DNA of 64,000 nucleotides, taken from NCBI GenBank assembly GCA_003116975.1, contig BGKB01000063.1:124001-188000 (forward strand), given 5' to 3'. Position 1 is the first letter of the stretch; each line of letters opens with the position of its first letter. Below the pieces are notes generated by a model. The model searched no databases, was not told the DNA's origin, and saw only the letters and a program-made list of their open reading frames with translations. Below are positions 24,801 through 57,293 of the stretch, one piece after another. Position numbers and translations under genes: made by a program. This DNA is from Aurantiochytrium sp. KH105. Lineage: Eukaryota > Sar > Bigyra > Thraustochytrida > Thraustochytriidae.

Positions 24801-26810
24801 TTTTCCGGCGCGGCGGTCAACCTCAAGGAGGCTGCCGCCGCCGCTGCTGCTGCTAACGACGACGAAGATGACGATGACAATGCCAAAGAGGCGGATGGCG
24901 AGGATGATGATAAGAATGCAGAGGTTGATGGCGACATTGGCGTTACTGGAGACCCAGAGGGGCAACCCCAGCAAGATGATGAGATTGGAATCGGTATTGG
25001 GACCCAAGTGGAATATCACGTCTCGGACGACCACTTCGGTCCAATGCTTGGCGTTGTGGTTGGGATCAAAGGCACCACCAGTAAGCGACAGGGACGCTTG
25101 CCCAAATACCAGGTCAAATTCGCTGCGGATACAAATGACATCAGCGAGACTCGCACTGTCGTGCTCGTGAGCAACGAGGTTCGTGCTGTTCCGATGAGGC
25201 CCATGCTCCTCAAGCTGGAGCAGCGGGTCTGGCACAAACATGCGTGCTACTTTGTGAACCCGATGCGCCCCGTCTTGGTAGGAATGCCCTTTGTGCTCAT
25301 GGCGCGCCCCGACAGACTCTCGGGGTATGCATTGTACGAGGCTGTCGCGAGGCAAGTTCGGCAGTTCAACGGCGCTTCTTCGCCTTCTGCGAACGCTGGT
25401 GACGAGGGCGGCGCGCTTTCTCCGGGCGTCTTTGAAAGTATTGGTGCTTCTGCGGGTTTGAGCGGCTCTCCGCCGACCAAGGATGTGTCTGCGTCACAGA
25501 TCCGATCGACATGGGGATTCACCATTGTCGCTCTCGGTGCCGACAGGCAACAACGAACTTGCGGCAGTTGCTCATGGATGTCTGCATGCGATGGTTGCCC
25601 GATTCAGCCCACAAGCACTCCCGTGTCCACGATATTCACGGGGCCGAGCACGCTTGTGGTCGACTGGGGGAGCGCGAGTTCCCCCGCTGGTAAATCGAGG
25701 TCGAATGCTTTGACTCTTATGCCTGTGGACAAACATTCGAGTGTCGACGATGTGCGACGCGAAGAGCAGAAGCGGATGCCCTTGTCTTCCTTGCTGGAGA
25801 ATTTTGTCCGGAAGGAGCAGCTCACCGGGGAGGATCAGGCCCGCTGTGCACGGTGCAAGGACTTCAAGGACCACTCCATGACGCTCGGGCTCTGGCGTGC
25901 GCCTCCTATCCTCGTGATGCACCTGAAGCGCTTCGATGGTAGCCGCAAACTCTTGAATTTGGTTGAGTATCCGACCCGAGATCTCGATCTTTCGCCTTAT
26001 TTGGCTCATGCGATGCCTGCTCAGCCTCGCAAATCCCGCAGATCTCTTGATCTCGCCCTGCGCAAGCGTGGCGTCGAAGCGGATGAGGACAGTAGCGGAG
26101 TCGAACAAGACGACGACGACGAAGAAAAGGAGGATATCGACGATGTGGAGCCGGACAATGCCGCTGGAGTCAGCAATGGGCGTTTCGTTGGCAAAGAATT
26201 GGGGGTGAACGCGCGCCCATCATCGATGTCTGCACGCAGAGACAGCGCTGTCGCTCCGGTCAATGCCTTGGAGGAAGAGGAAGAAGAAGAAGAAGAAGAA
26301 GAAGCTGAAGGCGAAAATGGTGGGGGGCACGGGAAGTCCGTCGCTGCGGCAGAGACGTCTGATCAGACTTTGTCACCAGAGGCTCTAGCTAAAGCCGAAG
26401 CAGAAGAAGAAGCACTCGAGCTTGTCGACGTGTTGGTAGACTCAGAGTATGTCGGTTTACGGGCGTACGGCGGTCATGAGCATGGTGGTATCCCTCCGGA
26501 GTACGATCTTTACGGTGTCGTGGATCACACGGGCAGCCTGGGCGGTGGCCACTACATCGCCAAAACGAAGAGCTCGATCAACGGCAAGTGGTACAACTTT
26601 GATGACCGGATCATTACCGAAATTAGCGAAGAAGAGGCCGTCTCTTCGCGGGCCTATCTTTTGTTTTACGTGCGCAAAGACGTTGCAGCCAATGCTGACG
26701 TGAATCGTCTCTTTCCTTGCGAGATTCTTAACTCCAAGAGCCTTCGGGCAGCTCGCAAGGCTCTCGATCCTCACAACCAGACCTTTCGGGACCGCTGTCC
26801 CATTATGTGA
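21870..26810 (+). CDS. USP32-like ubiquitin carboxyl-terminal hydrolase with EF-hand, DUSP and CaaX box
   Basis: 1646 residues; the start context CACCATGG is ideal. Order: Gly2 after the initiator Met; a canonical EF-hand loop DMNGNQALDWNE (74-85) and a degenerate second loop (110-121); a DUSP-like region (about 290-430, GDVWFVVSARWFRAW); a ubiquitin-like stretch (about 470-590); then the USP catalytic domain from about 672 with Cys box GNTCFM (C680), zinc-binding CxxC pairs in RCDTCG and RCARCK, His box GGGHY (H1561) and WYNFDD (D1579). Insertions in the catalytic domain include an acidic tract (985-1024), a Tudor-like beta segment (1044-1108) and poly-Glu (about 1468-1479). The last four residues, CPIM, are a farnesylation-type CaaX box. 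This order matches animal USP32, a Golgi/endosomal deubiquitinase. All catalytic residues are present. Confidence 0.9.
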   Translation: MGGTHGRIVSPEEARKRFTPLELRTLRSGFDRLASASPQQGFSEIGFMTFKSLVLADFPDFPELLALRMFSVFDMNGNQALDWNELLCGLCILCRGKHEERLRFLFQVYDNERTGALSRHSLLRFADCLDDHRLSDDERRSSYDLIDKAFARTRGTNAEWASPLTLEAFSRSMVQFMDSPLVSWPTRVGQKLLGPVFMAAAQTSVSDVAERGPMSKLGPPLPPRPDEVESAMMCQAAPGYGLNAHLSRSTGGPFADADLKRHPAFVRHQSSRAQLEEGSTFKRMHRSPDRELLVPGDVWFVVSARWFRAWQAYSGYSHGEVDLMSLRSSRQLERPGPIDNRDIVRGLEPEQDPNDPRDLGELEFCALRPELNHQRDFVILCRDAWEFLHGTYGGGPVLARKVIPAETPFERAEIELFPVSLHVRCVAFSGEAESGLDTTSDRAHLDSFNADRPARIQVSRRATVRDIERAILDRLMEPRGRALSTDSLYSTQSAAAEDGLAQKRAALQNRDRFSAECMRLWCMVDDSLESLSATFAGPEARPLRGPNINAKLLQDPQETVEEADLEDDQTIILELCSADGSWPLASIETLRSLRPRDPKIQIASGPHTNARVVMLGGGPSPHNSPTSRASSGLPAIGAQTARSNAKTQLATRPVGGPPSPGRPAPQVLGNVGMANLGNTCFMSASLQCLLHTESLKQYILDDAYVSDVNTTLRDSTHGLLADAFADLFRIAWGANGRIPASIAPRRFKKELSKHDPRFLGVQQQDAQELLSSLLDGLAQDLNRIKSKAYVELKDSDGRADQEVAREWWMAHLRRELSIVTALFSGQFKTLLRCDTCGYESARFEPFSTLSLPLPESPKRTVMVHVVFADASRPPLLVAMRLRKEGNFGDVRRALLDLQPGTTGSVVQSILQGPTSNTEDEDAGERAPRNLDSERLVLAYVFERQIFSFVPDARPLKTLRARDPLYAFELPHLHHEDGFSGAAVNLKEAAAAAAAANDDEDDDDNAKEADGEDDDKNAEVDGDIGVTGDPEGQPQQDDEIGIGIGTQVEYHVSDDHFGPMLGVVVGIKGTTSKRQGRLPKYQVKFAADTNDISETRTVVLVSNEVRAVPMRPMLLKLEQRVWHKHACYFVNPMRPVLVGMPFVLMARPDRLSGYALYEAVARQVRQFNGASSPSANAGDEGGALSPGVFESIGASAGLSGSPPTKDVSASQIRSTWGFTIVALGADRQQRTCGSCSWMSACDGCPIQPTSTPVSTIFTGPSTLVVDWGSASSPAGKSRSNALTLMPVDKHSSVDDVRREEQKRMPLSSLLENFVRKEQLTGEDQARCARCKDFKDHSMTLGLWRAPPILVMHLKRFDGSRKLLNLVEYPTRDLDLSPYLAHAMPAQPRKSRRSLDLALRKRGVEADEDSSGVEQDDDDEEKEDIDDVEPDNAAGVSNGRFVGKELGVNARPSSMSARRDSAVAPVNALEEEEEEEEEEEAEGENGGGHGKSVAAAETSDQTLSPEALAKAEAEEEALELVDVLVDSEYVGLRAYGGHEHGGIPPEYDLYGVVDHTGSLGGGHYIAKTKSSINGKWYNFDDRIITEISEEEAVSSRAYLLFYVRKDVAANADVNRLFPCEILNSKSLRAARKALDPHNQTFRDRCPIM

Positions 26811-27193
26811 GTGTTTTTCCAACTATTTGTTTGTTTGTTTGTTTGTTTGTTTGTTTGTTTGTTTGTTTGTTTGTTTGTTTGTTCGTTCGTTTGTTTGTTT
26901 GTTCGTTTGTTTGTTTGTTTGTTTGTTTGTTTCACCAGCGTTGTTTGTGCGCAGCGTTTTCCTAACATTTTCGTTTTTCTCGTCTTGCATGTGATGTGAC
27001 TGAAGGCGGAGCTACGCACGCCATTGTCCTGACTCATTCATCCAAGGCTGGAAACGACGAGATCAGTACGACCGCAGTTTGCTCAGGCTGGCTATTCGTC
27101 ACAGATTCACCGATTTGAGCTTGCCCATCACGATGGTGTCGGAGGATTGAAAGGCGCAGCAATTCCACAACGCGTTGGCAGGAGCAGAAGACA
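26811..27193. other. Intergenic region USP / NDUFAF5
   Basis: 383 bp, dominated by the TTTG microsatellite at 26826-26932. The rest is the leader of the methyltransferase-fold gene. Confidence 0.6.
26826..26932. repeat. TTTG tetranucleotide microsatellite
   Basis: About 26 units of GTTT with three or four GTTC variants, starting 16 bp after the USP stop codon, so probably transcribed in its 3' UTR. Confidence 0.95.
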
Positions 27194-28336
27194 ATGTACG
27201 GGCCACGACGCTTGGTCGCAAGCAGCATGGCGCGCGGCGCAAGTATCACGCGCGCGGTTGCTAAGGCGCCTGGTCTGAGAGCAGCAGCAGCGGCGAACGC
27301 ACGGCGCGCAGCCTCGGGAATGGCGCCGAGCGCAACTCGAGATCCCTTCGAGAGTGCCGTGAAGCGCGCACACAGGGACCGCGCGGCGCGAGCCTATGTG
27401 TCTAGCGGAGGGGACTTCGACTTTCTGCGCGAGCATGCCGCCTCGAGGATTGTTGACCGCATCTCTGATGTTGCCAAAGACTTTGACACCGCACTTGACC
27501 TCGGATGCGGCACAGGCAGCATTTTGGCCGAGCTCTTGCGCGAGGGCATCGAAGATGAGGACGGCTTTGAGGCGCCAGGCGCCATCCGAAAAGTTATTCA
27601 GCTCGAGCCTTCGACAATGATGGCCGATGTTGCGCGCGAGCGTGCCCAGACGCTCGAGGCTTCGGGTCGCCTCGAGGTGGAGACACTCGTGTGTCCTCTT
27701 GAAAACTGTCTCGAAGCCGTCCCGGAAGGCTCTGTGGACATCGTCGTCAGCTCTCTTTCGATGCACTGGGCCAATGGTCTGACGGAGGCTCTGCAGCGCG
27801 CTCAGCGAGCGCTCAAGCCAGATGGTGTCTTCATCGGTGCCATGCTCGGCGGCGACACGCTCCACGAACTCCGCACGTCTCTTGCGATTGCTGAACAAGA
27901 GCGCGAAGGTGGCATTAGCGCACACGTCTCGCCGATGATCCGGCACGCAGACGCGTGCGGTCTGTTGACGAATGCAGGGTTTAACCTCACAACAGTGGAC
28001 ACCGAGACGTTTACTGTCGAGTTTGGGTCCGCTTTTAAATGCATGGAAAACTTGAGCGGTATGGGCGAATCGAACGCGGTTTGGAATCGCCGGCCATACG
28101 TGTCAAAGGATACCTTCCTAGCGGCTGCGACGATTTACGAGCACCTTTATGGTGACGAGGAGGGCTACGTTCCTGCGACCTTTGATATGGTCTACATGAT
28201 TGGATGGAAGCCACATGACTCGCAGCCCAAACCACTCAAGCCTCAGGTCGCACAGACCTCATTGGGAACGCTTGGCAAGGGTTTTGATCTCACACAACAT
28301 TCTTCCCCTCGGGGTGGCTCGCCATCATCGCAATGA
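27194..28336 (+). CDS. NDUFAF5: NDUFAF5-like arginine hydroxylase, mitochondrial complex I assembly factor
   Basis: 380 residues. NDUFAF5 has a methyltransferase fold and hydroxylates an arginine of the NDUFS7 subunit early in complex I assembly in the mitochondrial matrix. The first 45 residues are Arg/Ala-rich with almost no acids, a typical mitochondrial presequence. Landmarks: DPFESAVKRAHRD (50-62), LDLGCGTG (101-108, SAM-binding motif I), SSLSMHWANGL, a GVFIGAMLGGDTLHELRTSL segment, GMGESNAVWNRR and YMIGWKPHDSQPKP near the C-terminus, all characteristic of the family. There is a small insertion (EDEDGFEAPGAI) after motif I. The start ATG has A at -3. Confidence 0.92.
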   Translation: MYGPRRLVASSMARGASITRAVAKAPGLRAAAAANARRAASGMAPSATRDPFESAVKRAHRDRAARAYVSSGGDFDFLREHAASRIVDRISDVAKDFDTALDLGCGTGSILAELLREGIEDEDGFEAPGAIRKVIQLEPSTMMADVARERAQTLEASGRLEVETLVCPLENCLEAVPEGSVDIVVSSLSMHWANGLTEALQRAQRALKPDGVFIGAMLGGDTLHELRTSLAIAEQEREGGISAHVSPMIRHADACGLLTNAGFNLTTVDTETFTVEFGSAFKCMENLSGMGESNAVWNRRPYVSKDTFLAAATIYEHLYGDEEGYVPATFDMVYMIGWKPHDSQPKPLKPQVAQTSLGTLGKGFDLTQHSSPRGGSPSSQ

Positions 28337-29144
28337 AGAAATTCGTTCTTGGGGCCGGGACCCCCCGAAGGCAAACAATGAGGTTAACGTTAGGCCTAGG
28401 CTTGGGCTGACTGCGTGATCCTTGAGTAAATATCATTAGAGTCTCAAGCATGGCGCGCAGGTCATCCAAGCTTGCGTGTCGACTTTCTGGTCGACTCTGA
28501 AGAAGAGACCATGCATTCTCTTTTCTTTTTTTCACCTTGCCCCGGCAAGATTAAAATCAAGATGAGCCCACGATTCAACAAACCTATCATCTATCTGTCT
28601 GTCCATCTGTCACGTCAAGTCAAGTCACGTCATGCCATACCACATCATATCACGTCACCTTACGTCAAACATACTATTTCAAGCCCCCAGAAGAATGTAT
28701 CGCTCTAGGCCTCAAAGAAAAAGATATGGATGTTCTCGGTGTCTCGTGATTATGAGGAGGCGGGGTAAGAGAAGATATCTCCGCTTCCCTTGGCCCCAAA
28801 GTGATCGTATCTGGTTAGGCGAGAGAAGCAAGAGAGACGCCTAGTTGTACTCTTCGTAATCATTCTTTCTTTTTTTCTTTTTTAGGTGTGATTTTATATG
28901 TGGTGTGCTTGCCTGCGTTCGTGAATTTGACCATCGATGTCAGTGAGTGTCCGCGACAAGAGCTGTCTAGGTCGCGAGGCTTTAAGTCATCGGGAAAACG
29001 CGTACAGATAAACGCACACCCTATTGTTTTTTGTTGTTGTTGAAAATAACCTTTCCGTTTGATTGGCCGACCCTCGGATCGCATTGCATTGCGATCAGCG
29101 AAGAAAGGAGCAGCGCCATCGTGTCAAATGAAAATGGATGGTGC
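28337..29144. other. Convergent intergenic region NDUFAF5 / DFRP1-like
   Basis: About 0.8 kb, relatively AT-rich. It contains a TAGGCCTA palindrome (28391-28398) 55 bp after the NDUFAF5 stop and a degenerate GTCAN pentanucleotide stretch (about 28608-28668). No gene is seen. Confidence 0.6.
28391..28398. other. TAGGCCTA palindrome, 3' flank of NDUFAF5
   Basis: Exact palindrome 55 bp downstream of the NDUFAF5 stop. Possible 3'-end element (see findings). Confidence 0.35.
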
Positions 29145-30440
29145 TCACTCTTCATCGTCGTCGTCGTCGTCATCGTCATCGTCAAGGTCGTCGAGGTCGT
29201 CAAGATCGTCATCGCCCTCCAAATAAAGTGTTTCCTGAATAGCGCTCGAATCGCCGTCAGCAGGGGGAGCTGCTGGCGGTTTAGAACTCGCTCCCGTCGC
29301 GCCCTCGTTGTTGGAGTCGTTGTCGGAGTCGTTGTCGTCTGTGGCGTCGCCATCTTGGCCCTTCGCGTCTTGTGTAGCTTGCGCGGTGCCGCCCGTGTCG
29401 CCAAAGTCATCGTCGTCGTCGTCCTTGAAGACAGACTGATCGAACTGGAACAGGGCCCTTCCACTGAGCACTGCGCCGGCCTTGCCTCCCTTCTTGGACG
29501 CCTCAGCGGCCTTGCGCTCTTGCTCCTCTTTCTCCTTGCGTTTCTTCTCCTTCCACTCGAAGAAGCGCTCCTTGGTCACCGGCGTCAAAGTGCCTGTCAA
29601 GTTTGCACGCTCTTCCTCGATGCGCTCCTCAATTGGAATGCCTCCACGCTCGCGGATCTCCTCTTCCTCGACAATCTTCTCCTTGATGAACTTGGTGAGG
29701 CGTTCGCTCGCCTCCGTGACAGAAGCCTCGACGTCGTCGGCCGGCTGCGAGAGGCCCTGCGCGCCCTTGGGTACCTCGAGGAGCACGCGTTGGCCACGGA
29801 CCATGGCCGAGATGTTCCTCACATCGAGAATCATTCCATTTTTGAAGTTGAAGGATTGAGGAGTCTCGCCAATCAGGACCATAGTCATCGGATTGCGGGT
29901 CGTGCCGTCCGCAACCTTGACATTGAGGCACGGAGAGCCGTCGTGCGCTTTGGAGACGAGGTTGTCCTTGTGCGTCATTTCCACGCAAAGACGCTCGACA
30001 ATCGCCTTTTGACCCAGGCCGTACACCTCGCGCAGGGGGCAGATGGGGATGCCAAAGTCCTTTTCGTCTTCCTCCTTTTGGCGGGCGGCGTCTTCCTCGG
30101 CTTTGGCTTTGTTCTCCTCCTCGAGCTTCTTCTTGACCTTCTTTTGCTCCTTGCTCTTGGGCTTCTTCTTGCCCGAGAGCGCGTACGCGTCACCGAGGAG
30201 GTCCAGCATCTCCTTTTCGGCGGCCTTTTGCGCCTCCTTGGCGCGCTTGTTCTCCGCGGCCTTCTTGGCCGCCATGGCCTCGCCGCCGCGAGACCCGTGC
30301 ACGGACGCCTGCACCTGCTTGGCCATGGCGCGCGCCTTGCGGCCCTTGGAGTTCTTCATGCCAAACAGCTTGTCCTCCACGATCTTCTCGCGCTTCTTCT
30401 CCGCGCCCTTGCCGGCGCCCTTCGCCTTGGCCTTCGCCAT
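29145..30440 (-). CDS. DFRP1/ZC3H15-family protein with an OB-fold-like domain instead of CCCH zinc fingers
   Basis: 431 residues. DFRP1 proteins (ZC3H15 in humans, Tma46 in yeast) bind and stabilise the DRG1 GTPase on ribosomes. The N-terminus matches: a Lys-rich start, then KIVEDKLFGMKNSKGRKAR (19-37). The C-terminal family region also matches: TLTPVTKERFFEWKEKKRKE (about 284-303), AVLSGRALFQFD (323-334) and an acidic tail. Between them, where ZC3H15 carries two CCCH fingers, there are only three scattered cysteines. Instead residues about 136-225 form a beta-rich pattern (LREVYGLGQKAIVERLCVEM, LNVKVADGTTRNPMTMVLIG, GMILDVRNISAMVRGQRVLL) resembling a nucleic-acid-binding OB fold. The family call rests on both ends; the OB call is inference from pattern. 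The coding Asp run ends the gene. Confidence 0.72.
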   Translation of the reverse strand: MAKAKAKGAGKGAEKKREKIVEDKLFGMKNSKGRKARAMAKQVQASVHGSRGGEAMAAKKAAENKRAKEAQKAAEKEMLDLLGDAYALSGKKKPKSKEQKKVKKKLEEENKAKAEEDAARQKEEDEKDFGIPICPLREVYGLGQKAIVERLCVEMTHKDNLVSKAHDGSPCLNVKVADGTTRNPMTMVLIGETPQSFNFKNGMILDVRNISAMVRGQRVLLEVPKGAQGLSQPADDVEASVTEASERLTKFIKEKIVEEEEIRERGGIPIEERIEEERANLTGTLTPVTKERFFEWKEKKRKEKEEQERKAAEASKKGGKAGAVLSGRALFQFDQSVFKDDDDDDFGDTGGTAQATQDAKGQDGDATDDNDSDNDSNNEGATGASSKPPAAPPADGDSSAIQETLYLEGDDDLDDLDDLDDDDDDDDDDEE

Positions 30441-31242
30441 CGTGCCGCCGCCGCGCCTCGCGCGCTCGCTCGCCGCCGCCCGCTGGAGCCACGCAAACCG
30501 GTCGTTCGTTCGCGCCCTCGCGCAGCCCGATGATCAGATTCCAGTAGTCAGGCCTCGCGCCGGCAGCCGGCCGGCCCTTCCGCGCCGCTCGCGCGCACGC
30601 CGCGCCGCCGCGTGCTCGCGACTCCGCGTCGAGTCGGGTCGCGTCGCGTCGCGTCGCGTCGCGTCGCGTCGAGTCGGGATTGGGCGCCGCGTTCGTTCTG
30701 AGGGCGAGCGCCTCGCCCGCCTCGCGAGCGGCTGCGCCAATCTGCACTTGCGGCGCGGCCGCTCTGCACTTGCCGCGCGCCGATGGGCCACTTGCGCCGG
30801 GGCCATTGTGCACTTGCGCCGCGCGCTGCCGGGCCCGAGGGCCACTCGCTCTCGGTCCCCGGCCTATGTGCCGCTGCGATAGGTCGCTATTGGCAGATGG
30901 ATCGGGTGCGGGGTGGGACATCGTTCGATGTCAAGTGGAACTAGGCCAAGGTATGGTCGTGGGAGGCACATATGCTTGCGTTCAGTTCAGTAGGAGGCCC
31001 TCTGTCCTTGAAAGAGAAAGTTTGCGGACGAACACGATGTCCCTTCCTCCGGCTTGGGCGTTCTTTCGCCATGTTGAGCACTTTACTTTTGTGGTTGAAA
31101 AAAAGGCCGAGTTCAACTTACAGTTAGTTGCTAGACTTGATTAGCCTTTTCGGGCCTAGGTTTATGCTATCCTTCAAACAAACATCTATTGCCTTTTTCA
31201 GAAAGATTTTGTGAGGCCCTTGTCTTTCTTTGCCCGCATGCA
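30441..31242. other. Upstream region of the DFRP1-like gene
   Basis: About 0.8 kb head to tail between the DFRP1-like start and the coiled-coil gene stop. The first 400 bp are extremely GC-rich with a GCGTC array (30627-30680); the rest is AT-richer 3' flank of the coiled-coil gene with a TAGGCCTA-like GGCCTAGG at 31153-31160. No gene is seen. Confidence 0.55.
30627..30680. repeat. GCGTC pentanucleotide array
   Basis: About ten units of GCGTC (with GAGTC variants at the ends) in the upstream region of the DFRP1-like gene, matching the array upstream of the RING gene. Confidence 0.9.
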
Positions 31243-34200
31243 TCAAGGAGCCGAAGGTGGAGAAGTCGGCAGCCAGCGAGTCTCACAGTCGAGCCTGCGC
31301 TCGGATGGAACAGGAACGAGAGGACGTTTGTGATAGTGTCCTGATCGTTTGCCTTCAAGGAAGTCCTCCAGAAAAGCGTCCAGCTGATCGCCGTGAAGTT
31401 TTGAACAATCTCCCATGCTCTCCAAGCGAGCAAGGCGCTCGCGATTCTGCTCGTGAATACGATAAATGTCGAAATCAGCAGCCCCCTGTTCTTGTCGCGG
31501 CGCATTGTGACTTTTTGTTCCTGGCTCATCCGCTTGGCAGGGATCGTGAACCGGAGATACCCTCAATGTAGCTTTCCGCGCAAGCTGACGTTTTTGGAGT
31601 GGCGATGACGCTGATGCGGAAGGTTGCAATCTTGCTGGAGGGGGGGGCGATGAAGCAATCTTTTGATTGACAGCGATTCCTATATTTTCATCAGTCACCG
31701 TACCGGGTGCCTCTGTCCCTGTCCCTGTCCCTGTCCCTGTTCCTGTCCACGCGCTCGCGCGATGCTTGCGCGGCGAGGTCCGGTGTGCTCGCCGGGACGC
31801 ATCCCTACTCACGCCAAAGGCTTTCCCATCAGGAAAAATAAATTTGGACTCACTTTCCAATGTTTGTCCAAGCGGGCTTGTCGCGCCTCTCAAGGTGTCA
31901 TCGCTGTTACTCGCGCTTGGGAAAAGCGACTTGACGAGTTGTAGTGCTGGCGAACCCAAGTCAGCCCATGATTCTCTATCTTGTGGCGATGACAATTTCC
32001 CCAGAGGCTGCATTTGGCGTTTCCCGGCATCACGCAAGTTGCTCCGACGCCTTCGCGTACCTGTGGGTTGCGGTGCAGGCACATAGCCCAGAACATTTCG
32101 GCGAAAGATATCCTCTTGGCTCGAACTCTCGTGTCGAAGATCTTCAAGTTGTTCGCGCATGTACTCTAGAGCTTCCCGCGTCCGCGCTTGCTCGCTTCGT
32201 GTCGCTGCAGTTTCCCTGAGAAGTGTGTCAAGCGTGTCGTCATGGGCATTGGAGAGCGTACCACGTTCGGCTCCGGCTCCGCTGGAGTTCCTACGAGCAA
32301 CGTTTGCATCAACAGCTGCTACCGAGTTTGGCAGTCTTCCTGTTAATTGCCTCACTTGTAAGGAAGAGCTACGCTTCGAGATTGGTCGTTCATCAGGAGG
32401 AATGAAGTTTTCACGCGGCGAGACGGAGGGCTCGAAGAGCTGCGCGGTCCCTGGAAGACCTTGCGGCGGCATCTCTGGTGAGGCAGGGTCGAATAAGCCT
32501 GCCTTGGCAGCCTCCATGGGTGCATGTGCAGAGCGAGGACTTGACGAGCTTCCTTGCTGCAGATGCTCTCCAGGCGTCGCAGCGCCCATTGCGCCAATCG
32601 AAGGTCTTCGTGGATCCTTGAACTTTAGTTCGAGTTCACGTCTTTCCCTAACAACACGCTCCTCTTCCTCCTCTTCTTGTCGCTTCCTCTGCTCTTCCTC
32701 TTCTTCTCGTTGACGTTTTTTCTCTGCAATTTGTTTTTCGAGCTGTTCTTGGTGTTCGATTTTGCGTTTTTGGGCTTCTTTCTCGCGCTCTAACGACTCT
32801 TGAATTTCGCGTTGCTCCCGCGCAAGACGCTCTTCATCCTCACGTTCTTGCCGCTCGCGCTCCTTCTTTTCGCGCTCCTTGCGAGCCTGGTCCATTTGCA
32901 TTTGCGAAAGTAACTCGTTTCGCTGCGCCATTTGCTTCATGCGCTTTTCTGCAAGCTCGGCTTGAACCGCAGGATCAGACGGATCAAGCATGAGCTTCGT
33001 GAATCGGGGCACGCTGGCACGAGACGGCGATCCTGGCCCTTGACTTCTTGCGCTCTCGAGCGCATGCATACCGGGCATGCAAGAACTGGCACCGTTGGGG
33101 CCAGAATAGTAAACGCCTCCAGAATTACCCATTTGCGAGCCTTCGTGGAGTGCTGGGACGCCTGCTGGATGCGGCTGCTGATAATGGGGTGCCTGCAGCT
33201 GACCGGATCCAGGTACCGCTCCTCCTGGTGGATACTGAACAGGGTACATTTGATGTTGAACCAATGGTCCGCCAGAAAACTGTTGCGGACCCGATAGAGC
33301 CGAATTCTGGAGTGGCGGCTGCGGTTGCTGCAACGCAGCAGGAAAGGGTGTGTTAGACCAGGGCTGCTGCTGATGATGGCGTGGATCAAAAGGGATTGTT
33401 TGCTGATACGGAGGTATCTGCTGTTGCGTGGGAGACGGAAATGTCGGAACGATGTGGGGGAATCCTTGAGGTGCAGGTAGAGCCCCATTTCCATATCCTA
33501 CGGATCGTGAAGTGTCCAAGCCTCTACGCGCGACGCGTTCCGCGTTTTCTCGCTGCTTTTTTTCCGCCATCTGCTGTTCAAGGTACCGCGCATACTCTGA
33601 CTTTTTCTGTGCAGCCGCGCTTTCCGAACCTGGGCCCCAGCCCAGCGCCTGGTGGATTCCTCGATGAGCATGAGAAGCTGCAACTGGGCTCGGTGCGCTA
33701 TAATCTTCTTCGACACGGGTTTCAAGACGCTGCTGTTGCTCTCGGATCTTTTTGTCACGAATTTGCTTTTCTAGGTCTCTTGCGTATTGCTGCTTGGCAC
33801 TTTCAGCTTCAATATGTTGAGGGTGAGATGGCCCTCGCGACTCGTCGTGTCCTATACCTCGAGCGAGGAGGCGCTCTTGCTCATCACGGAGCTTTTTCTC
33901 GCGAATTTGCTGCTCTAGCTCGTGAGCATATCGTGCACGTCCGTTGAGAGCAGCTTGGGCATGCTGGTCATGGGCATCAGATGTCAAGCCCTGAGGCTGG
34001 CTTCGGAGAATGCGATCTTCCTCTTCGCGTCGTTTCTTGTCTCGGATTTGTTGCTCGAGATCGTGAGCATATTGCGTACGTGCATCGAGTGCACTCTGGT
34101 TCTGCTGTGCGTGCGCTGCCGTTTGAAGGCCTCGAGGCTGGTCTCGAAGCAGTCGCTCTTCCTCTTCACGTCGTTTCTTGTCATGAATTTGTTGCTCGAG

Positions 34201-35625
34201 CTCATGAGCATATTGAGCACGTGCATCGAGTGCACGCTGATTTTCACGCGCGTGCTCTGCGCTTTGAATTCCTCGAGGCTGATCTCGAAGAAGACGCTCT
34301 TCCTCTTCGCGTCGCTTCTTGTCGTGAATTTGCTGTTCGAGCTCATGAGCATATTGGGCACGTGCGTTCAGGGCGGCTTGGGCATCTCCCGCATGGCTGA
34401 GCGGTGCGGTGTTTGAAGGTTGAGAACGCAGAATGCGATCTAGCTCCTCGTGTCGCTTCTTCTCATGGATCTGCTGCTCGAGCTCGTGCGCATACCGTGC
34501 GCGGGCGTCCAAGGCATCTTGGGTATTATGTTCATAACCGCTTGAAGTAGGCTGGGTTTGCTGATTTCGTAAGACCCGGTCTTCCTCCTCGCGTAGCCTC
34601 TTTTCGTGCATTTGATTCTCTAGCTCGCGGGCGTACCGAGAGCGCGCGTCGAGCGCCTCTTTCTTTTCTTGCTCAAGGCTCGACATGTTGCTATTTTCAG
34701 GTTGTGTGTGCATATCATGACTGTGGTACTCTGCGCGCTCCCCATTACGAATGTGTTGGTTTACTGTATCATGTGTATGCCGCGCTGACATATCGATCGC
34801 AAAGCGTTTTTGCTCTTCGCTACCATCGAACATATTGGACGAACTGTTTGAACTTTTCGAAAAGTGACCAAACTGCGAAGATGACTTGCTTGCAGACTGT
34901 ACATGAGGGTCTTCTTCAATCCCATTTGGGGTGTGATGGTGATGAACTTGCTGGCTTTCGTTCGGTGCAAAATTATTGCGGGAGTTTTGATGGAATTCTC
35001 TCTCTCCAAAACGTATGTCTTTCATTTGACCCAAGTTGTTCGATACTCCTGGCACGGAAAATGAGTCTGAATGTTTCTCTTGCGCTCGCGGCTGAAGATT
35101 GGTTTGTAGCTTGGATATTGCGTCGCCATTTGAGCTTTTACGGGCATCCTGACTTAATGCGCGGATTGAATCTCGAGTTTTTTCTTGAAATCGCAAGCGC
35201 TTGGCTTCGTACGCTTGGCGACGGCGCTCCTCTGCCCTTTCCTCTTCGGCGCTATGCGTCGGTGGAGGCTTGTGTGCCCCGCTGCCTCCATTTTCGACGT
35301 CGTGAAAGAGGTCTGCAAGCTTTGCATTTCCAGTCGCAAAAAGTTGAGCTGTTCCCGCGCCCTCGTCTGCGGGCCTTCTTTGCCTCTCTAAAGCCGCAAG
35401 TTCTTGGGAAGGGGCTTCAAGTTGTGCGGGTCTGGGGTTCCTTCTGCGTCGTCGCTCCTCTTCACGTCTGCGTAGGCGCTCTTCCCGCGAGAGCCCTGAT
35501 CGAGAGCTATCGCCCGACACTCCTGCGCCGCCAAGGGCGCCGCTACCTTCGCCGCCGAGTTTGGCCCAAAGAGACGCGTTGGGGGCCTTGGGCGCGAAGA
35601 GTTGGTCCTTTTGCAAGGGTTCCAT
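31243..35625 (-). CDS. Large coiled-coil protein with 47-residue repeats, CSPP1-like
   Basis: 1460 residues from ATG 35625; the frame extends 105 bp upstream only to a TTG. The protein is rich in Glu, Arg, Gln and Lys. Six tandem repeats of exactly 47 residues, then two looser ones, read ALDARAxYAHELEQQI followed by a basic/acidic helix (KKRREEEERLLR) and a variable linker. A Pro/Gln-rich region follows, then a long uninterrupted helix of alternating Glu/Arg (around residues 880-1000), then Ser-rich C-terminal segments. The YAxELExQIxEKK repeat resembles the centrosome and spindle pole associated protein CSPP1 of cilia, so a microtubule or basal-body role is suggested but not proven. It shares its upstream region with the divergent ARM/IQ gene. 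No catalytic domain. Confidence 0.75.
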   Translation of the reverse strand: MEPLQKDQLFAPKAPNASLWAKLGGEGSGALGGAGVSGDSSRSGLSREERLRRREEERRRRRNPRPAQLEAPSQELAALERQRRPADEGAGTAQLFATGNAKLADLFHDVENGGSGAHKPPPTHSAEEERAEERRRQAYEAKRLRFQEKTRDSIRALSQDARKSSNGDAISKLQTNLQPRAQEKHSDSFSVPGVSNNLGQMKDIRFGEREFHQNSRNNFAPNESQQVHHHHTPNGIEEDPHVQSASKSSSQFGHFSKSSNSSSNMFDGSEEQKRFAIDMSARHTHDTVNQHIRNGERAEYHSHDMHTQPENSNMSSLEQEKKEALDARSRYARELENQMHEKRLREEEDRVLRNQQTQPTSSGYEHNTQDALDARARYAHELEQQIHEKKRHEELDRILRSQPSNTAPLSHAGDAQAALNARAQYAHELEQQIHDKKRREEEERLLRDQPRGIQSAEHARENQRALDARAQYAHELEQQIHDKKRREEEERLLRDQPRGLQTAAHAQQNQSALDARTQYAHDLEQQIRDKKRREEEDRILRSQPQGLTSDAHDQHAQAALNGRARYAHELEQQIREKKLRDEQERLLARGIGHDESRGPSHPQHIEAESAKQQYARDLEKQIRDKKIREQQQRLETRVEEDYSAPSPVAASHAHRGIHQALGWGPGSESAAAQKKSEYARYLEQQMAEKKQRENAERVARRGLDTSRSVGYGNGALPAPQGFPHIVPTFPSPTQQQIPPYQQTIPFDPRHHQQQPWSNTPFPAALQQPQPPLQNSALSGPQQFSGGPLVQHQMYPVQYPPGGAVPGSGQLQAPHYQQPHPAGVPALHEGSQMGNSGGVYYSGPNGASSCMPGMHALESARSQGPGSPSRASVPRFTKLMLDPSDPAVQAELAEKRMKQMAQRNELLSQMQMDQARKEREKKERERQEREDEERLAREQREIQESLEREKEAQKRKIEHQEQLEKQIAEKKRQREEEEEQRKRQEEEEEERVVRERRELELKFKDPRRPSIGAMGAATPGEHLQQGSSSSPRSAHAPMEAAKAGLFDPASPEMPPQGLPGTAQLFEPSVSPRENFIPPDERPISKRSSSLQVRQLTGRLPNSVAAVDANVARRNSSGAGAERGTLSNAHDDTLDTLLRETAATRSEQARTREALEYMREQLEDLRHESSSQEDIFRRNVLGYVPAPQPTGTRRRRSNLRDAGKRQMQPLGKLSSPQDRESWADLGSPALQLVKSLFPSASNSDDTLRGATSPLGQTLESESKFIFPDGKAFGVSRDASRRAHRTSPRKHRASAWTGTGTGTGTGTEAPGTVTDENIGIAVNQKIASSPPPPARLQPSASASSPLQKRQLARKATLRVSPVHDPCQADEPGTKSHNAPRQEQGAADFDIYRIHEQNRERLARLESMGDCSKLHGDQLDAFLEDFLEGKRSGHYHKRPLVPVPSERRLDCETRWLPTSPPSAP
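33811..34656 (-). repeat. Six 141-bp coding repeats in the coiled-coil gene
   Basis: Unit starts on the minus strand are at 34656, 34515, 34374, 34233, 34092 and 33951; every unit is exactly 47 codons. Copies 3 and 4 are nearly identical in protein over the helical half, while the linker halves differ. Two diverged copies follow below 33811. Confidence 0.9.
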
Positions 35626-36118: not shown

Positions 36119-39100
36119 ATGCCGCTCGAGGAGCGCGTCGTGCAGTACGCGAGCTCTGCAGGAGCCCTGGTCACGGAGCCGTACGACTGGGAGGAGTGGT
36201 ACGGCGACGCCGGAGACCGCGCCGCGCGAACAGGCAGAAATGCGCTCGCGTTCAAGCGCTACTTTGCCAACGAGCTTTTGAACCTTCGCAAGGAGGTACG
36301 GCGGGCGTACGACGCCAAGCGATCGGCAGAGGACATTCATCACGAAGAGCAAAAGGCACGTGCGAGGGAGCGCGAAGAGCGCAGCCAACTTGTGCAACAG
36401 CTTGGGCGCGTTTCTCTAAAGCTTCGCGGCGAAGGCCCTGGCCGTCGCCGTGGCAGGCGACAAGGTGAAAAGAACCTTGTTATTGCCTCCGACTACGCAA
36501 ATCCCCACGGAGATATCGAAGATGGAGATTCCAGCGAGGATGAAGACTGGGAGACAGATGCCTGGAGCAAGGGGGAAATCGAAGGCGCCGTAGATTTACT
36601 CATTGCAGAGATCCGCGGGTCCCCACACGCGAAGCGTCGTCTCGTTGCCACAAAGATGCTTCGTAAGCTCATTCGCAGACACCAAATGGCTCGCGATCAT
36701 GTCGATCTGCTCATGCCTTCCTTGGTAGAAAAGGCATTATTTGTGGACTTGACGGCTTCTCGTCGCACTTCTGAAACCACTCGAATCTCGCAGCTCATTG
36801 CTGACGTAGTGTCCGTATTGCCCGAGAAGATGTCGCGCTTTGCTTGCGCAGAAAAAGCGTCGCGCATCCTCGCGCGAAAGTTTCAGCTCGCAGCTCTCGT
36901 CATTCAGTCTTGGCATCGTATGCGTATCTTCAAGCAGCATAAAGCACACACCATGCCTCTCGAATTTCGTGTACGGCGCCGCGCATTTCTTCTCGTGGCC
37001 TTTATGGACAGCCTAGAGCAGTGGACTCGCTTTTCCTCGAGCCCATCCGCGTCCCTGGCGCTGTCAGACAAAATTGTGTTACTTCGAATCCTTTGCGGCC
37101 TCACAGCAGACACCAATACCTACTTCCGCCTCAAAGATCGTAGACTCATTGTTGAGAATGGCGGGGTTCTCGCGGTCCAAGAGCTCGCGTTGAGTAGCTC
37201 CCAGGAAGCACGAATTCTGGCCATGCAGATCCTCACGAGCCTGGCGTCAGAGCCCTGTCTTCGACTTGGGCTCTTACAGAGCGGCGTGCACCTCGTTCTT
37301 GGAGTCCTTTTGCGGTCGGATCTCGTCGAGGATCGTTGCATGGCTCTCGAAGTTGCAGACCTGCTCGCATCAGCAACTTGCTTTGGCGAGACTCACACTG
37401 CATGGGCTGGCGCTTGGAAGCGTCTGTATAATACTTCCTCTCATGAAACACATGGCATTACATATGAAAATGAGTGCCGACATGAAATCAATCTTCGAGG
37501 CGTATCAACATTCCGTCGCGCCTTGCGTCCTGAACTCCGCGTGGTGGACGCCGCAGCCCTTTTAGTCGACCGGAGACGCGATGGAGGCCTCTTGAGATGG
37601 CTTCGCGAGCAGCTGCAGGCAAATGATGGCATTGTGCGCCTTGGGGCCACTATTGCATTGTTCAAGCTCGCAAGCGGCGTTTGCAATCCCCAAGTTGCAA
37701 GCGTCGCCGAGCCAAAGACCTTGCATGAGCGCCACTCTGGATATCTCGAAAAACTCGGTTTACGGAGGGCCAAGTTTGTTCAGGCCCTCGTGAGCAATCT
37801 CTGCGATGCAGACACTGCCGGCCTGCAAATCGCCACGCTTCAACTGATCGCACAGCTCAGCGGATTCAAACCCACGCGAGATTCTCTCATGAAAGCAGGC
37901 CTTGCTTCGCGCATACAGTCTAACGTAAGAGGACCCATTGGTCTGTTCGCGCTTGTGCTGCTCTGTTCGCAGAGCTCGAGGCCCATACAGCTACAAGACG
38001 AGAGGAATTTGGATGGAAGCCATCGTCCAGAAGAAGTTGCTGCTTCATCCTTGGACTTTGAAAAGGTCGACGTCCTGCAACGACCCGCTCTGGGAATCGT
38101 CGAGCTTGACATCTTCGCGTCTGAGATGGACTTTCGCCGATGCTTGGAATCCACTCTTGTTGCATTCGCCTCTCTCAAGCCAGATAATGCTGCGCGCGCC
38201 GCCTATCAAAGGTTGGCGCACAAGTTTAATGCCATGGGTTTGCTGTTCGACTTTCTCTTTACGCCCAAATCGGACGTGCTTCTCGACCGCATAGAGCTAA
38301 GTGCTGTGGCTGCAATAACCTTGGGGCGTGCGGGCTCCGTATGCGGTTCGGAGATTCTGAGTCAAATTCGGCTCGATCACCAATTTCGGCGTCTTGCGGA
38401 GCCTGTTCATACTATTGTAAAGCGTGAGAGCGATACGGACAGCTTCCCTGCGCATATTCAAGGCCTTGTGGTCGTTAGTGCCTCGTCTGCGTGTCAGGCG
38501 CTCTGTACTGTCGCGCGCACGCCTGCACGAAAGCATTTGGTGGAAGCATTGCTTCGCGATGGCGCCGTGCGAGCTTTGGGCATTCTGGTGAGCCAATTCG
38601 CTGAAGATGCCGCGCCACTTTATAAGGAGGTTTGCTGTAGATCTGCGGAGCTGCTGGGCTCGCTGCTCCCATATCAAGGTCTTGAAAAGGAGGCAAGCGC
38701 GGACCTTTTGTCAACTACAACCACCGAGGCCGAAAAGGATGAAGATGAGGACCTTGACGCGACGGACGATGCACAGCAGCAAAGGGCGCTGATTTCACGA
38801 GCGCGGCAAAACGCCAAAAAGGCCGCTACGCAAGGTGTCTTTGGTCTAGGATGGGGCGATGTGCGTTCGATGCTGCCTTCTGCGGAGCTGCGAAAGCTGG
38901 CCACGTCCGTGTTTGAAGCGTGTGGCAAAGAACTCATTCAAGCGCTGACATTGGCATGCAATGTCGACATCCAAGCCAGTATTTGCTATGCGCTCAGCCG
39001 GCTTGCAGGTACACATCAAGGTGCACGTGGTCTCCTTTCGAATGGGTGTCTGAAGCCCATTGTCGCAATGCTTCCAGGACGAAGCGAGGTTGAAAATGGT

Positions 39101-40216
39101 CTTCCAAACGCAGAGCATGCTCAACGTCTGGCCATGCTACCTCCCTCATACTTTACGCTGTGTGCAGCTTTGGCACGAGCGTGGACGGGTAAGCTCGCGA
39201 TGATATCAGATGATGTTCTCCGCCACGCCGTGGACGTCTTGTGTCTGCTGAGTCCACGACAGGATCCGCGACTTCACGGAGAAGCTGCACATTTGGTGGC
39301 ACGCGTCGCAAATGTGCATGACCCTGTGCATGGGTCCTGCAACGAGATGGTGCTTCGAGGGCGATACAATTGCGCAGCTCCGCTTCTCAAGCTTGCGAGC
39401 GACAAGAGCATGCCAAATCGAGTACGATTTTTTGCTTTGTTGGCCCTAGCACAGCTTGCACAAGACGAGCTGTTTGCGGTCCCTCGGCTGGTTCGCGCTG
39501 GAGCGCTCTCGCGAATGTGTAGCCTCGTTCAAGTTCTTGAGAACCGCGGTGATGCAGAAGCGGACATGATGCTTTCTCAGGCACTTCGCGTCATTCACGC
39601 GCTCGTTGCGTTTATGCTGGGAACCCACCAGGGCAGGTTGTTGGAAAAGGGGATTGAAGCCACATTGCGTCGACTCGCCAGCCGCAAAGGAGCTACATCA
39701 GGATCGCAATTGGCAGCGCAGCCTACAGTACGGGAGATGGCGCGGGCTGTGCTCGATAGTCTTAGTCTCTCCCTTGCCTTTGGCCCCGAAGTCGCTCGGC
39801 AAATTACAGTCGCGCCTGGACTAGAAAAGGAAGAGCCACTCACGCGGGAGGTTCTCGATGAGGAGGTTCTACGAAACGATCTCACAAATCACGTTAAAAA
39901 TCCATTTGGGACGCAGTTGGACCTAGGTGTGACCTATTCGGCTCTTGATGGTCGATTACAACGTAAAGTGCCGGGAGAGCCAAGTCCTCGCAGAAAAAGT
40001 CCGCGTAGATCGCGGGTTCCTCGTCCGCCTGAAGATCGCGAGCAAGGTAATGACTTCGGGGTCAATTCGACAAGCTTATTGTCCGAGGCCGTGCCAAGCG
40101 CAAGCCGATTTCGACAACCAGGTCGGAGATCGGATCTGCGGGCCACAAGACCGCCTCGAAAGCCAGCCCAAGCGACGATAACGACGACGACAACAACGAC
40201 GATGACGAAGAAATGA
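36119..40216 (+). CDS. Large ARM-type helical-repeat protein with an IQ motif
   Basis: 1365 residues. The first 170 residues are charged, with a coiled-coil-like stretch (45-100) and an acidic patch. An IQ motif, VIQSWHRMRIFKQHK (about 263-277), would bind calmodulin or a myosin-type light chain. From about 180 to 1250 the protein is almost entirely amphipathic helices in ARM/HEAT-like pairs (for example VLAVQELALSSSQEARILAMQ, YALSRLAGTHQGARGLLSNG), interrupted by an acidic loop near 875-890. The C-terminal 100 residues are basic and Pro/Arg/Thr-rich. I do not recognise a named family. A scaffold role is inferred from the fold, and the head-to-head arrangement with a CSPP1-like gene raises a flagellar or cytoskeletal role. 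Confidence 0.75.
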   Translation: MPLEERVVQYASSAGALVTEPYDWEEWYGDAGDRAARTGRNALAFKRYFANELLNLRKEVRRAYDAKRSAEDIHHEEQKARAREREERSQLVQQLGRVSLKLRGEGPGRRRGRRQGEKNLVIASDYANPHGDIEDGDSSEDEDWETDAWSKGEIEGAVDLLIAEIRGSPHAKRRLVATKMLRKLIRRHQMARDHVDLLMPSLVEKALFVDLTASRRTSETTRISQLIADVVSVLPEKMSRFACAEKASRILARKFQLAALVIQSWHRMRIFKQHKAHTMPLEFRVRRRAFLLVAFMDSLEQWTRFSSSPSASLALSDKIVLLRILCGLTADTNTYFRLKDRRLIVENGGVLAVQELALSSSQEARILAMQILTSLASEPCLRLGLLQSGVHLVLGVLLRSDLVEDRCMALEVADLLASATCFGETHTAWAGAWKRLYNTSSHETHGITYENECRHEINLRGVSTFRRALRPELRVVDAAALLVDRRRDGGLLRWLREQLQANDGIVRLGATIALFKLASGVCNPQVASVAEPKTLHERHSGYLEKLGLRRAKFVQALVSNLCDADTAGLQIATLQLIAQLSGFKPTRDSLMKAGLASRIQSNVRGPIGLFALVLLCSQSSRPIQLQDERNLDGSHRPEEVAASSLDFEKVDVLQRPALGIVELDIFASEMDFRRCLESTLVAFASLKPDNAARAAYQRLAHKFNAMGLLFDFLFTPKSDVLLDRIELSAVAAITLGRAGSVCGSEILSQIRLDHQFRRLAEPVHTIVKRESDTDSFPAHIQGLVVVSASSACQALCTVARTPARKHLVEALLRDGAVRALGILVSQFAEDAAPLYKEVCCRSAELLGSLLPYQGLEKEASADLLSTTTTEAEKDEDEDLDATDDAQQQRALISRARQNAKKAATQGVFGLGWGDVRSMLPSAELRKLATSVFEACGKELIQALTLACNVDIQASICYALSRLAGTHQGARGLLSNGCLKPIVAMLPGRSEVENGLPNAEHAQRLAMLPPSYFTLCAALARAWTGKLAMISDDVLRHAVDVLCLLSPRQDPRLHGEAAHLVARVANVHDPVHGSCNEMVLRGRYNCAAPLLKLASDKSMPNRVRFFALLALAQLAQDELFAVPRLVRAGALSRMCSLVQVLENRGDAEADMMLSQALRVIHALVAFMLGTHQGRLLEKGIEATLRRLASRKGATSGSQLAAQPTVREMARAVLDSLSLSLAFGPEVARQITVAPGLEKEEPLTREVLDEEVLRNDLTNHVKNPFGTQLDLGVTYSALDGRLQRKVPGEPSPRRKSPRRSRVPRPPEDREQGNDFGVNSTSLLSEAVPSASRFRQPGRRSDLRATRPPRKPAQATITTTTTTTMTKK

Positions 40217-57100: not shown

Positions 57101-57293
57101 AATCGTCGTCCACGTCGCAGGCAAAGGCCGGATTGAAGTTACCCCGATCGCTGGGCTCGGTGGTCAGCGACACGAGCGGAGTCCACGAGGCCGCGCGGCT
57201 CCCGCTCGCCCACGCAGGCCCCTGCGCGACCAGCGCGAGCAGCACCAGCGCCGCGGACGCCAGCAGCAGCCGTCCCGGCGCCGTCGTCGCCAT
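51171..57293 (-). CDS. Giant receptor-like protein B, tandem paralogue of receptor A
   Basis: 2040 residues with the same architecture as receptor A: a signal peptide (1-29); a propeller-like region with Asp-box STDDGESW (391-398); beta-helix repeats (about 680-1040, GGAI turns); an EGF-like CPGTCASTGTC segment (about 1180-1215); a Cys-rich module CERCARGSYVEDSMKGCIACPNEL (about 1358-1382 onward); about eight membrane helices (1528-1895); and a polar Ser/Gly-rich cytosolic tail. The membrane part is the most alike, for example ITIGLIQVATGFQRVFGPTYDWW and FEVFELLRKYLLTSVVLLVADGTL. Same strand and adjacent, so it arose by tandem duplication. The propeller and tails have diverged most. Function is unknown; a surface receptor, adhesin or transport role is possible. 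Confidence 0.82.
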   Translation of the reverse strand: MATTAPGRLLLASAALVLLALVAQGPAWASGSRAASWTPLVSLTTEPSDRGNFNPAFACDVDDDCLLAFSRGGDDLYYKMRPNGSDWPTDNGTLVFNDTTSIKQQQVQVAVYGENKGWVLAYRNKNDANLYSIRVAYITKADAFNGDMWMGAEKGIGQRVSVSEVKGKNNNRLPTIAADKNSNVVVVWQAQYSFALGDDVNIGNDKDLISVSFPIRVGGGPITASDVTMVTSVFSGIEDDIFQDRNPVLLSSSQSQRMVVAATATNGGGQADIMFGETKVDVCGWKDRVRVTNLDAKDADITIAASPHDDYWLAAWEHRAVGIRFARIAPNEQGNLKVDSLGFIAPLGFPNTQGDEQVVLVADPNKPQHWAVFYRFKVSEEKIYHLVFRVSTDDGESWSRAYYLTDEPSDNYDRFIPVATLGGEYLFVSNGVDNVTFANTSSDELYAIENFTENQTVPDLDYRENDSDAACFIVELPRNGSHLQLGEYIRGLAPKVIRCLQIVVPDAPSDAVIHMNLEVLFDLDLVAEYLELCPFNYVGIREEAKLTSGDFGLAQIGSMPRRACAARRYDNVNVEAASVFILAASDDRGLPGENRAALPLSIEAWASPTREYVPDQGDQVIEFEHRMAGSYSELRAHLEDTTFVHGEIVVTTAYMEIASELVVRRGVNISLVAQDGLSVYIQGDDILHVKPGAVLWRLQGIEFSRNKLDIEIPGSNSTNSSVTIPPRDGGLMLVQGRVGKIESCVFSKSKAYGSLGQRVGGAILIDGQVDAIVNTTFDQMHATEGGAISISTQGIITLIYGCTFSGNRQRDMKTGMAGAIAVSGHIGTIQASLFEENRSNGVGGAIAVDLTGSINRILETDFIGNYAGLYGGALHFGISSHFPTLWRGGTLRGNTASGGAAVFAKGVLAPLVDDETCTAGEACMQDLSVSSNEGTIGGALYFEENPQLAAFTLSDIAFSSNLATQGTGAALIVAGATVLKLSASTFELNSVTEHGGAMSLESGAEADLTDVTFVNNTADLQGGALYVGAGGYLSASACEFTDNAAFLTCREYPVCQLKEVVGDRQPCDSRDGWIAFLNETEVAPNALGCTKGVGGSVYLAAGVTAHIHQSKFSGANPIPNVDLDASYSDSSGEELFLKNQAGRHVYAESRFRLSESEFDGDAGSFAPSTSVMGCPGTCASTGTCTAEGQPSPSVKCTCAGAFEGENGYEEGGCEGLRATHVSAASALLLLGEDSESTTEAEVGPDGLAVVSWTWTFGEVDYFIVYRTSTRSAIRTSSNGWASCVDASEAASQIASCVKVRDSEARSVSMGLQLGEASFFRVIANVDGKDSAQSDAMSSASIICEEGMEQVPTLEDGMLTCERCARGSYVEDSMKGCIACPNELQTTLDVATSISDCVAPVGFYQVQVDSDEDGGASEVQVIPCTEGFQCGDQGQTLESLELAPGFWRPSIYAENVLECPQKEYCIGGGGTGKKNVSSDSRSRVLTSWPEPIYCREGHTGPYCAVCKDGYSKHGTETCKECTEATLTRERGIFAGVTIVVLLLWPCFIAANFYEALSTRDDTQRRRRCRPCGSFKASLRRVRDTVREARGPITITIGLIQVATGFQRVFGPTYDWWGEWSMLPTSMSLVTLDASVLPSVTGCIIPDTHASKLLMATLVPVLMLMIAAAMFAITRLFFARTEDRRNSLSSATWYVIAMLLFLVFPSVNTTIMQTFVCDSFEDGSRAMRFDLSTKCEDLGWVHTYAIAMALLYVIGPIVLFVVLIHGSHKPALERAVFLHELYKDPTASDKRTAIRILRKFYEVFELLRKYLLTSVVLLVADGTLGQVAFGLYITFFYTLLQTSMQPYDKWEDNLLATVAHTQLFSVLGMLLFASIAEDSDSLGSVTLFILLIGPCLAIFFGFRRICSGRRRNVRSGSAGGASDASSSSGRQSDAGLGEVSGAGQGADTPQSMVLQAKGDEPASWVSAGPPAQQQIADAEPVSASSLVVDCDADLSSESSMDAPPGPELASPLSIDVVMMDEGATDHDVDENGPKHRNSLTLQ

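What the first reader, a model, noticed from the sequence alone, without database searches (positions are those of the whole stretch)
29145..30440. DFRP1-family protein in which an OB-fold-like domain replaces the two CCCH zinc fingers
Both ends match the ZC3H15/Tma46 family: the EDKLFGMKNSKG segment and the TPVTKERFFEWK...LSGRALF region that contacts the DRG1 GTPase. The centre holds only three scattered Cys, so tandem CCCH fingers are impossible. Residues about 136-225 instead show a five-strand-like pattern with VADGT and a GMILDVRNI turn, as in single-stranded nucleic-acid-binding OB folds. A swap of the RNA-binding module in a ribosome-associated GTPase partner would be a notable lineage feature.
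Basis: partly seen in the sequence, partly recalled or inferred. Interest (0 to 1): 0.75.

Follow-up and report, generated by a model that had tools for sequence, protein, structure and literature searches.

The report
Zinc-finger-less partner of DRG1 GTPase
This protist gene encodes the usual partner of the ribosome-linked GTPase DRG1, but the two zinc fingers that touch the ribosome in yeast are gone and an unclassified, conserved stretch sits in their place; that this stretch is an OB fold, as first proposed, could not be shown.

Summary
The gene is real: an uninterrupted 431-residue frame (window 29145-30440, minus strand) with a collinear, allele-like copy on another contig. It is a DFRP1 (ZC3H15/Tma46) orthologue: Pfam DFRP_C at E = 6e-19, an N-terminal EDKxFGxKN block shared with human ZC3H15, and yeast contact residues F246, W249 and K250 kept. 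The assembly also encodes DRG1, DRG2 and an RWD-type DFRP2; six-frame searches found no other DFRP1. The CCCH fingers are absent: three Cys in all, no CCCH pattern, no zinc-finger match. In yeast the fingers contact 40S RNA and the second is needed for function (review), so this is a real architectural change.

Residues 128-262 look constrained (9 synonymous, 1 non-synonymous difference between the copies) and match no known family credibly. The OB-fold reading is plausible by eye but not supported: OB profiles are equalled by 5-21% of shuffles, hhalign gives 0.2%, and one of six pairwise comparisons is nominally low (22 of 1000 shuffles). Both AlphaFold jobs were uninformative (pLDDT about 34). 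No relatives were found in the collections available, so fold and lineage breadth stay untested. Verdict: new variant of a known kind; finger loss supported, OB identity undecided.

The parts
29145..30440 (-). DFRP1-like gene, 431 aa plus stop, single open frame
   Evidence: copy on contig C38, 98% identical, collinear at about 95-97% over window 25230-35039
30300..30434 (-). residues 3-47: conserved DFRP1 N-terminal block with EDKLFGMKNSKG
   Evidence: aligns with human ZC3H15 6-50, 0 of 5000 shuffles; pattern only in the two copies of this gene
29655..30059 (-). residues 128-262: central stretch in place of the CCCH fingers; constrained, unclassified; OB fold proposed, not shown
   Evidence: 9 synonymous and 1 non-synonymous difference between copies; no family or PDB match, one NCBIfam match far below its cut-off; OB tests not significant
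29394..29639 (-). residues 268-349: DFRP_C domain (DRG1-binding)
   Evidence: Pfam PF16543 E = 6e-19; PDB 4a9a_C
29541..29579 (-). residues 288-300: counterparts of Tma46 I241, F246, W249, K250, H253 (here V288, F293, W296, K297, K300)
   Evidence: alignment with residue roles from PMC3510508 passages; numbering counted by hand
29148..29426 (-). residues 339-431: acidic tail, the more variable end between the copies
   Evidence: residues 351-431 have 3 synonymous and 5 non-synonymous differences and a 4-aa plus a 1-aa indel

Best explanation
The gene is the organism's DFRP1, the stabilising and recruiting partner of the GTPase DRG1. Its C-terminal DFRP_C segment wraps the GTPase and TGS domains of DRG1 as Tma46 does with Rbg1 (inferred from sequence). 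The two CCCH fingers have been lost and a constrained central domain of about 95-135 residues, of unknown fold, stands in the same place in the protein. Most likely it supplies the ribosome or RNA contact that the fingers give in yeast, so that the DRG1 complex still reaches translating ribosomes by a different surface. Shown here: orthology by sequence, absence of fingers, presence of the DRG1 and DRG2 partners and of an RWD-type DFRP2, constraint on the centre. Inferred: DRG1 binding, ribosome contact through the centre. Not shown: the fold.
For: DFRP_C over cut-off; Tma46 as best PDB match with F246, W249 and K250 kept; 38.7% identity over 111 aa with human ZC3H15, 61.6 bits, whereas the own DFRP2 reaches 22.7 bits; N-terminal block shared, 0 of 5000 shuffles. 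DFRP_C in the assembly: 4 matches of 4 candidates, two genes in two copies each, the other being the RWD type. DRG1 present, 501 bits to Rbg1 against 370 to Rbg2; DRG2 present, 399 to Rbg2 against 384 to Rbg1. No CCCH. Structured parts 12 synonymous to 1 non-synonymous against 7 to 9 in the tails, Fisher p = 0.008; centre alone against tails p = 0.037. Review text: Tma46 fingers contact 40S RNA, and a second-finger mutant does not rescue; Tma46 stays on polysomes without Rbg1.
Against: No experiment, no expression data and no relatives: the domain is known from one genome. Rbg1 Y264, which stacks on Tma46, is Ser in this DRG1, and H253 of Tma46 is Lys here (W278 is kept). RNA or ribosome contact by the centre is argued only from position. 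The selection count rests on 29 differences in one pair of copies. In the centre no known nucleic-acid-binding family is recognised.
Confidence: 0.6

Rival explanations
1. The central domain is an OB fold of the Ssb/RPA kind that binds single-stranded RNA, swapped in for the fingers.
For: By eye, the order of blocks (DGSPCLNVKVADGT, then FKNGMILDVRNISAMVRGQ) follows human SSB1 and Sulfolobus SSB; hhalign places the second block in that register and BLASTP the first one with SSB1, 18.5 bits, E = 0.019 for one pair. Local score with SSB1: 2.2% of 1000 shuffles.
Against: Profiles: 5.4 to 10.6% of 20000 shuffles score as well; rank 7 of 199 scored segments of the window; whole-profile alignment 83 of 400; hhalign P = 0.38; SsoSSB 28% and the Arabidopsis OB protein 92% of shuffles locally, 37 to 63% globally; no alignment with SsoSSB. 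The Ssb-like OB family is not found anywhere in the assembly, so that search would not see it here. AlphaFold uninformative.
Confidence: 0.3
2. The centre is a protein-protein interaction domain or a structural spacer and does not contact RNA; recruitment to ribosomes is left to DRG1 itself or to the N-terminal block.
For: No nucleic-acid-binding family is recognised. DFRP2, the sister partner, uses an RWD protein-interaction domain at the equivalent place. DRG1 itself contacts the ribosome in yeast structures (review).
Against: In yeast Tma46 brings Rbg1 to polysomes and a finger mutant fails; the centre is constrained.
Confidence: 0.3
3. A normal finger-bearing DFRP1 exists in this organism and was missed, and this gene is a specialised paralogue.
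For: Searches were six-frame without introns and the completeness of the assembly is not given.
Against: DRG1, DRG2, DFRP2 and this gene each appear as two matches; DFRP_C up to E = 10, the human finger-to-DFRP segment and the N-terminal motif found no further DFRP1. The CCCH genes met (contigs C32/C241, C44) have no DFRP_C match in the two scanned.
Confidence: 0.06
4. Assembly error, chimeric gene or decaying pseudogene.
For: Only two sequences, from one assembly.
Against: Two copies on different contigs agree, both open, collinear at about 95-97%, with constraint on the centre.
Confidence: 0.02

Closest known systems
DFRP1 (human ZC3H15/Lerepo4, yeast Tma46)
   Same: N-terminal EDKxFGxKN block, DFRP_C segment with aromatic contact residues, acidic tail, DRG1 in the same genome
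   Different: no CCCH zinc fingers; an unclassified constrained centre instead
DFRP2 (human RWDD1, yeast Gir2)
   Same: shares the DFRP_C segment in general; also lacks zinc fingers
   Different: no RWD domain here; lacks the DFRP1 N-terminal block; the genome has a separate RWD-type DFRP2
Ssb-like OB proteins (human SSB1, Sulfolobus SSB)
   Same: by-eye order of two short blocks
   Different: no significant similarity in profile, pairwise or profile-profile tests

Membership tests
DFRP1 (ZC3H15/Tma46) | C-terminal DFRP domain that binds DRG1 | tested here: met
   Pfam PF16543 68.8 bits, cut-off 27.5; binding itself not testable here
   0 of 5000 shuffles
DFRP1 (ZC3H15/Tma46) | two CCCH zinc fingers | tested here: not met
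   three Cys, no CCCH pattern; only DFRP_C in Pfam up to E = 10. Positive control: typed human ZC3H15 gives zf-CCCH and DFRP_C, though only one of its fingers scores. So it is an orthologue by its ends, not a CCCH protein.
DFRP1 (ZC3H15/Tma46) | association with DRG1 and polysomes | not testable with these tools
   DRG1 gene present; no binding data
DFRP2 (RWDD1/Gir2) | N-terminal RWD domain | tested here: not met
   no RWD match; the other DFRP gene has it, E = 1.9e-19
OB fold (Ssb/RPA kind) | sequence-profile similarity to OB families | tested here: not met
   one nominal pairwise result
OB fold (Ssb/RPA kind) | five-strand beta barrel | tested here: inconclusive
   AlphaFold pLDDT 34.8 and 33.8; no fold search was run on these models

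The most novel reading that the evidence does not exclude
In this lineage the ribosome-anchoring CCCH fingers of DFRP1 were replaced by an OB-type or otherwise new single-stranded RNA-binding domain, so that a conserved eukaryotic DRG1 complex reaches the ribosome through a non-homologous module.
Probability: 0.3. Interest if true: 0.7.

Novelty: new variant of a known kind. Interest (0 to 1): 0.5.

Why it matters
Yeast work (as told by the review) ties the DRG1 complex to ribosomes and to its function through the CCCH fingers of the partner. An organism whose only detected DFRP1 lacks both fingers gives a natural test of that model: either another domain took over the contact, or the fingers are less essential than yeast suggests. 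A non-homologous swap in a conserved translation factor would be of interest to translation and evolution specialists; the present evidence is from one genome.

Tried and rejected
Relatives: P0001 in viral contigs (15 pattern stretches, none a relative), in genome contigs (99, none), in phages (none); central stretch in phages up to E = 10 (3 records, best E = 0.6 to a tape-measure gene, taken as chance). The DFRP1 N-terminal pattern in viral contigs gave 6 stretches and in genome contigs 14; all 20 were translated and none looked like DFRP1. Sulfolobus SSB and an SSB alignment in viral contigs: none.

Paralogue of the centre in the assembly: 3 matches of 4 candidates up to E = 10, two being this gene and its copy, the third E = 1.88, 28% over part of it, taken as chance.

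Structure: two AlphaFold jobs, both too poor to read; no fold search was run on them. NCBIfam gave one match to the centre, NF041832, 14.4 bits against a cut-off of 400, rejected. PHROGs none. PADLOC was not searched.

OB tests. A degenerate trace of the fingers was looked for: the centre scores no better than 75% of 2000 shuffles against the human finger region. Ssb-like OB family in the assembly: no candidate.

Literature: seven searches; only listings were seen (40 of 148, 5 of 5, 20 of 32, 15 of 32, 20 of 2274, 20 of 5234, 10 of 30). No listed title or abstract start mentions a DFRP1 without fingers. Passages read: PMC8629797 (sections 9 and 14 part 1 of 2), PMC3510508, PMC8040806, PMC9256742. 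Zeng et al. was not read; its result is taken from the review. One search fetched an unrelated paper by a wrongly guessed DOI.

Own mistakes: the first of two proteins (window:29718-30111) was out of frame, so its empty result means nothing; replace it. One search counted three differences at a mispaired stop codon; one search is the corrected count. One search ranked the OB profile on 18354 reported rows; one search repeats it on 20000 shuffles.

Full report
What is there. Window 29145-30440, minus strand, is one open frame of 431 codons from its first ATG; stop to stop the frame is 462. A second copy lies on contig C38, 98% identical as protein. The DNA around both is collinear at 94.6 to 96.8% identity over window 25230-35039, as for two haplotypes; the RWD-type DFRP gene shows the same pairing (contigs C4 and C187, 94.5 to 95.6%). 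The assembly is 76,034,492 bases in 367 contigs and unnamed. The lineage was not established; the one search meant for it did not complete.

Identity. Pfam finds a single family up to E = 10, DFRP_C, at 6e-19, residues 268-349. The best PDB sequence match is the Tma46 fragment crystallised with Rbg1, 4a9a_C, E = 7e-4 over residues 253-374; the next matches, to acidic stretches and histone tails, are low-complexity. In alignment scores the N-terminal 127 residues against human 1-60 (110; shuffles mean 44.8, maximum 79) and the DFRP_C part (146; mean 33.8, maximum 66) are reached by 0 of 5000 shuffles each. The genome's other DFRP gene gives 22.7 bits at most with ZC3H15 and carries an RWD domain (E = 1.9e-19); its DFRP_C match is 23.9 bits, under the cut-off of 27.5.

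Contact residues. In the Rbg1-Tma46 structure paper (passages) Tma46 I241, F246, W249, K250 and H253 and Rbg1 Y264 and W278 are named at the interface. Counting along the alignments, the residues here are V288, F293, W296, K297, K300 in DFRP1 and Ser and Trp in DRG1. Three of five on one side and one of two on the other are unchanged; Y264 to Ser and H253 to Lys are departures.

Partners. The DRG-specific family PF16897 has 8 matches, 4 over the cut-off, in two genes with two places each. One is DRG1 (501 bits to Rbg1, 370 to Rbg2), the other DRG2 (399 to Rbg2, 384 to Rbg1).

No fingers, and no fingered second gene. The protein has Cys at 134, 152 and 171 and His at 48, 157 and 166, and no CCCH pattern; two fingers would need six Cys. 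The centre shows no trace of the human finger region: 75% of 2000 shuffles do as well. In the assembly, DFRP_C up to E = 10 gives 4 matches of 4 candidates, all accounted for by this gene and DFRP2. The human finger-to-DFRP segment gives 7 matches of 7 candidates: two are this gene and its copy, five lie in other CCCH genes, of which the C241 and C44 frames were scanned and have no DFRP_C. The N-terminal DNA pattern occurs twice, once per copy, 0 for the reversed control. All these searches read six frames without introns.

The centre. Between the copies, residues 128-262 have 9 synonymous and 1 non-synonymous nucleotide differences, residues 263-350 have 3 and 0, the N-terminal 127 have 4 and 4, and 351-431 have 3 and 5. 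The two structured parts together (12 to 1) differ from the tails (7 to 9), Fisher p = 0.008; the centre alone against the tails gives p = 0.037. This is one pair of copies and 29 differences. The centre therefore behaves like a folded, used domain, not like a spacer.

Is it an OB fold? By eye it can be laid on human SSB1 in the right order. The tests do not bear this out. Pfam, 102 residues, none up to E = 10, where typed human SSB1 and Sulfolobus SSB are found at 3.2e-7 and 1.4e-11. PDB sequences: none up to E = 10. BLASTP with SSB1: 18.5 bits over 19 residues; with Sulfolobus SSB nothing. Pairwise shuffles, six tests: local SSB1 p = 0.022, SsoSSB 0.28, Arabidopsis 0.92; global 0.55, 0.37, 0.63. 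OB profiles built from 3 typed proteins and, iterated, from these and 6 archaeal plasmid proteins: 1090, 2115, 1867, 2078 and 2102 of 20000 shuffles do as well. Against 135-residue segments of long frames in the window the centre ranks 7th of 199 scored. Whole-profile alignment: 83 of 400. hhalign: probability 0.2%, P = 0.38, in the OB register. AlphaFold with 2 and with 1 sequence: pLDDT 34.8 and 33.8. So an OB fold is neither shown nor excluded; I put it at 0.3.

How it probably works. From the literature seen: DFRP1 stabilises DRG1 and raises its GTPase activity; Tma46 stays on polysomes when Rbg1 cannot bind it; the fingers of Tma46 contact 40S RNA and a mutation of the second finger abolishes rescue. 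By analogy the DFRP_C segment here should hold DRG1, and the central domain, which stands between the N-terminal block and DFRP_C as the fingers do, is the best candidate for the ribosome contact. The first half is well grounded in sequence, the second is an inference from position and constraint. A pure protein-interaction role, as the RWD domain has in DFRP2, is a serious rival.

Novelty. The review describes DFRP1 as having two conserved CCCH fingers. In seven library searches (listings only) I saw no DFRP1 without fingers. That is not proof of absence from print, and no eukaryote sequence collection was at hand, so other protists may well have the same form.

Noticed in passing
window 31243-35625 (-): 1460-aa charged, repetitive frame with a tandem repeat of period 141 (34016-34365, 2.5 copies) and no Pfam match; its YAxELxxQIxxKKxREE repeats recall centrosomal CSPP1 from memory, untested.
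   Followed up: partly
window 41976-48224 (-) and 51171-57293 (-): Two very long frames (2083 and 2040 aa) with signal-peptide-like starts that look alike near the N-terminus; possibly paralogues. The first has one ephrin-receptor-like match; the second was not scanned.
   Followed up: no
window 36119-40213 (+) and 15962-17992 (-): Frames of 1365 and 677 aa without a Pfam match at E = 0.001.
   Followed up: no
L019 1285-3087 (-), contig C44: Frame with four CCCH finger stretches and a PP2C phosphatase match at its start: an unusual combination, not checked for a merged gene.
   Followed up: no
window 30625-30676: CGCGT repeated about 10 times upstream of the DFRP1 start.
   Followed up: no
window 29031-30533 (+): 500-aa open frame on the strand opposite the whole DFRP1 gene, probably a by-product of composition.
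   Followed up: no
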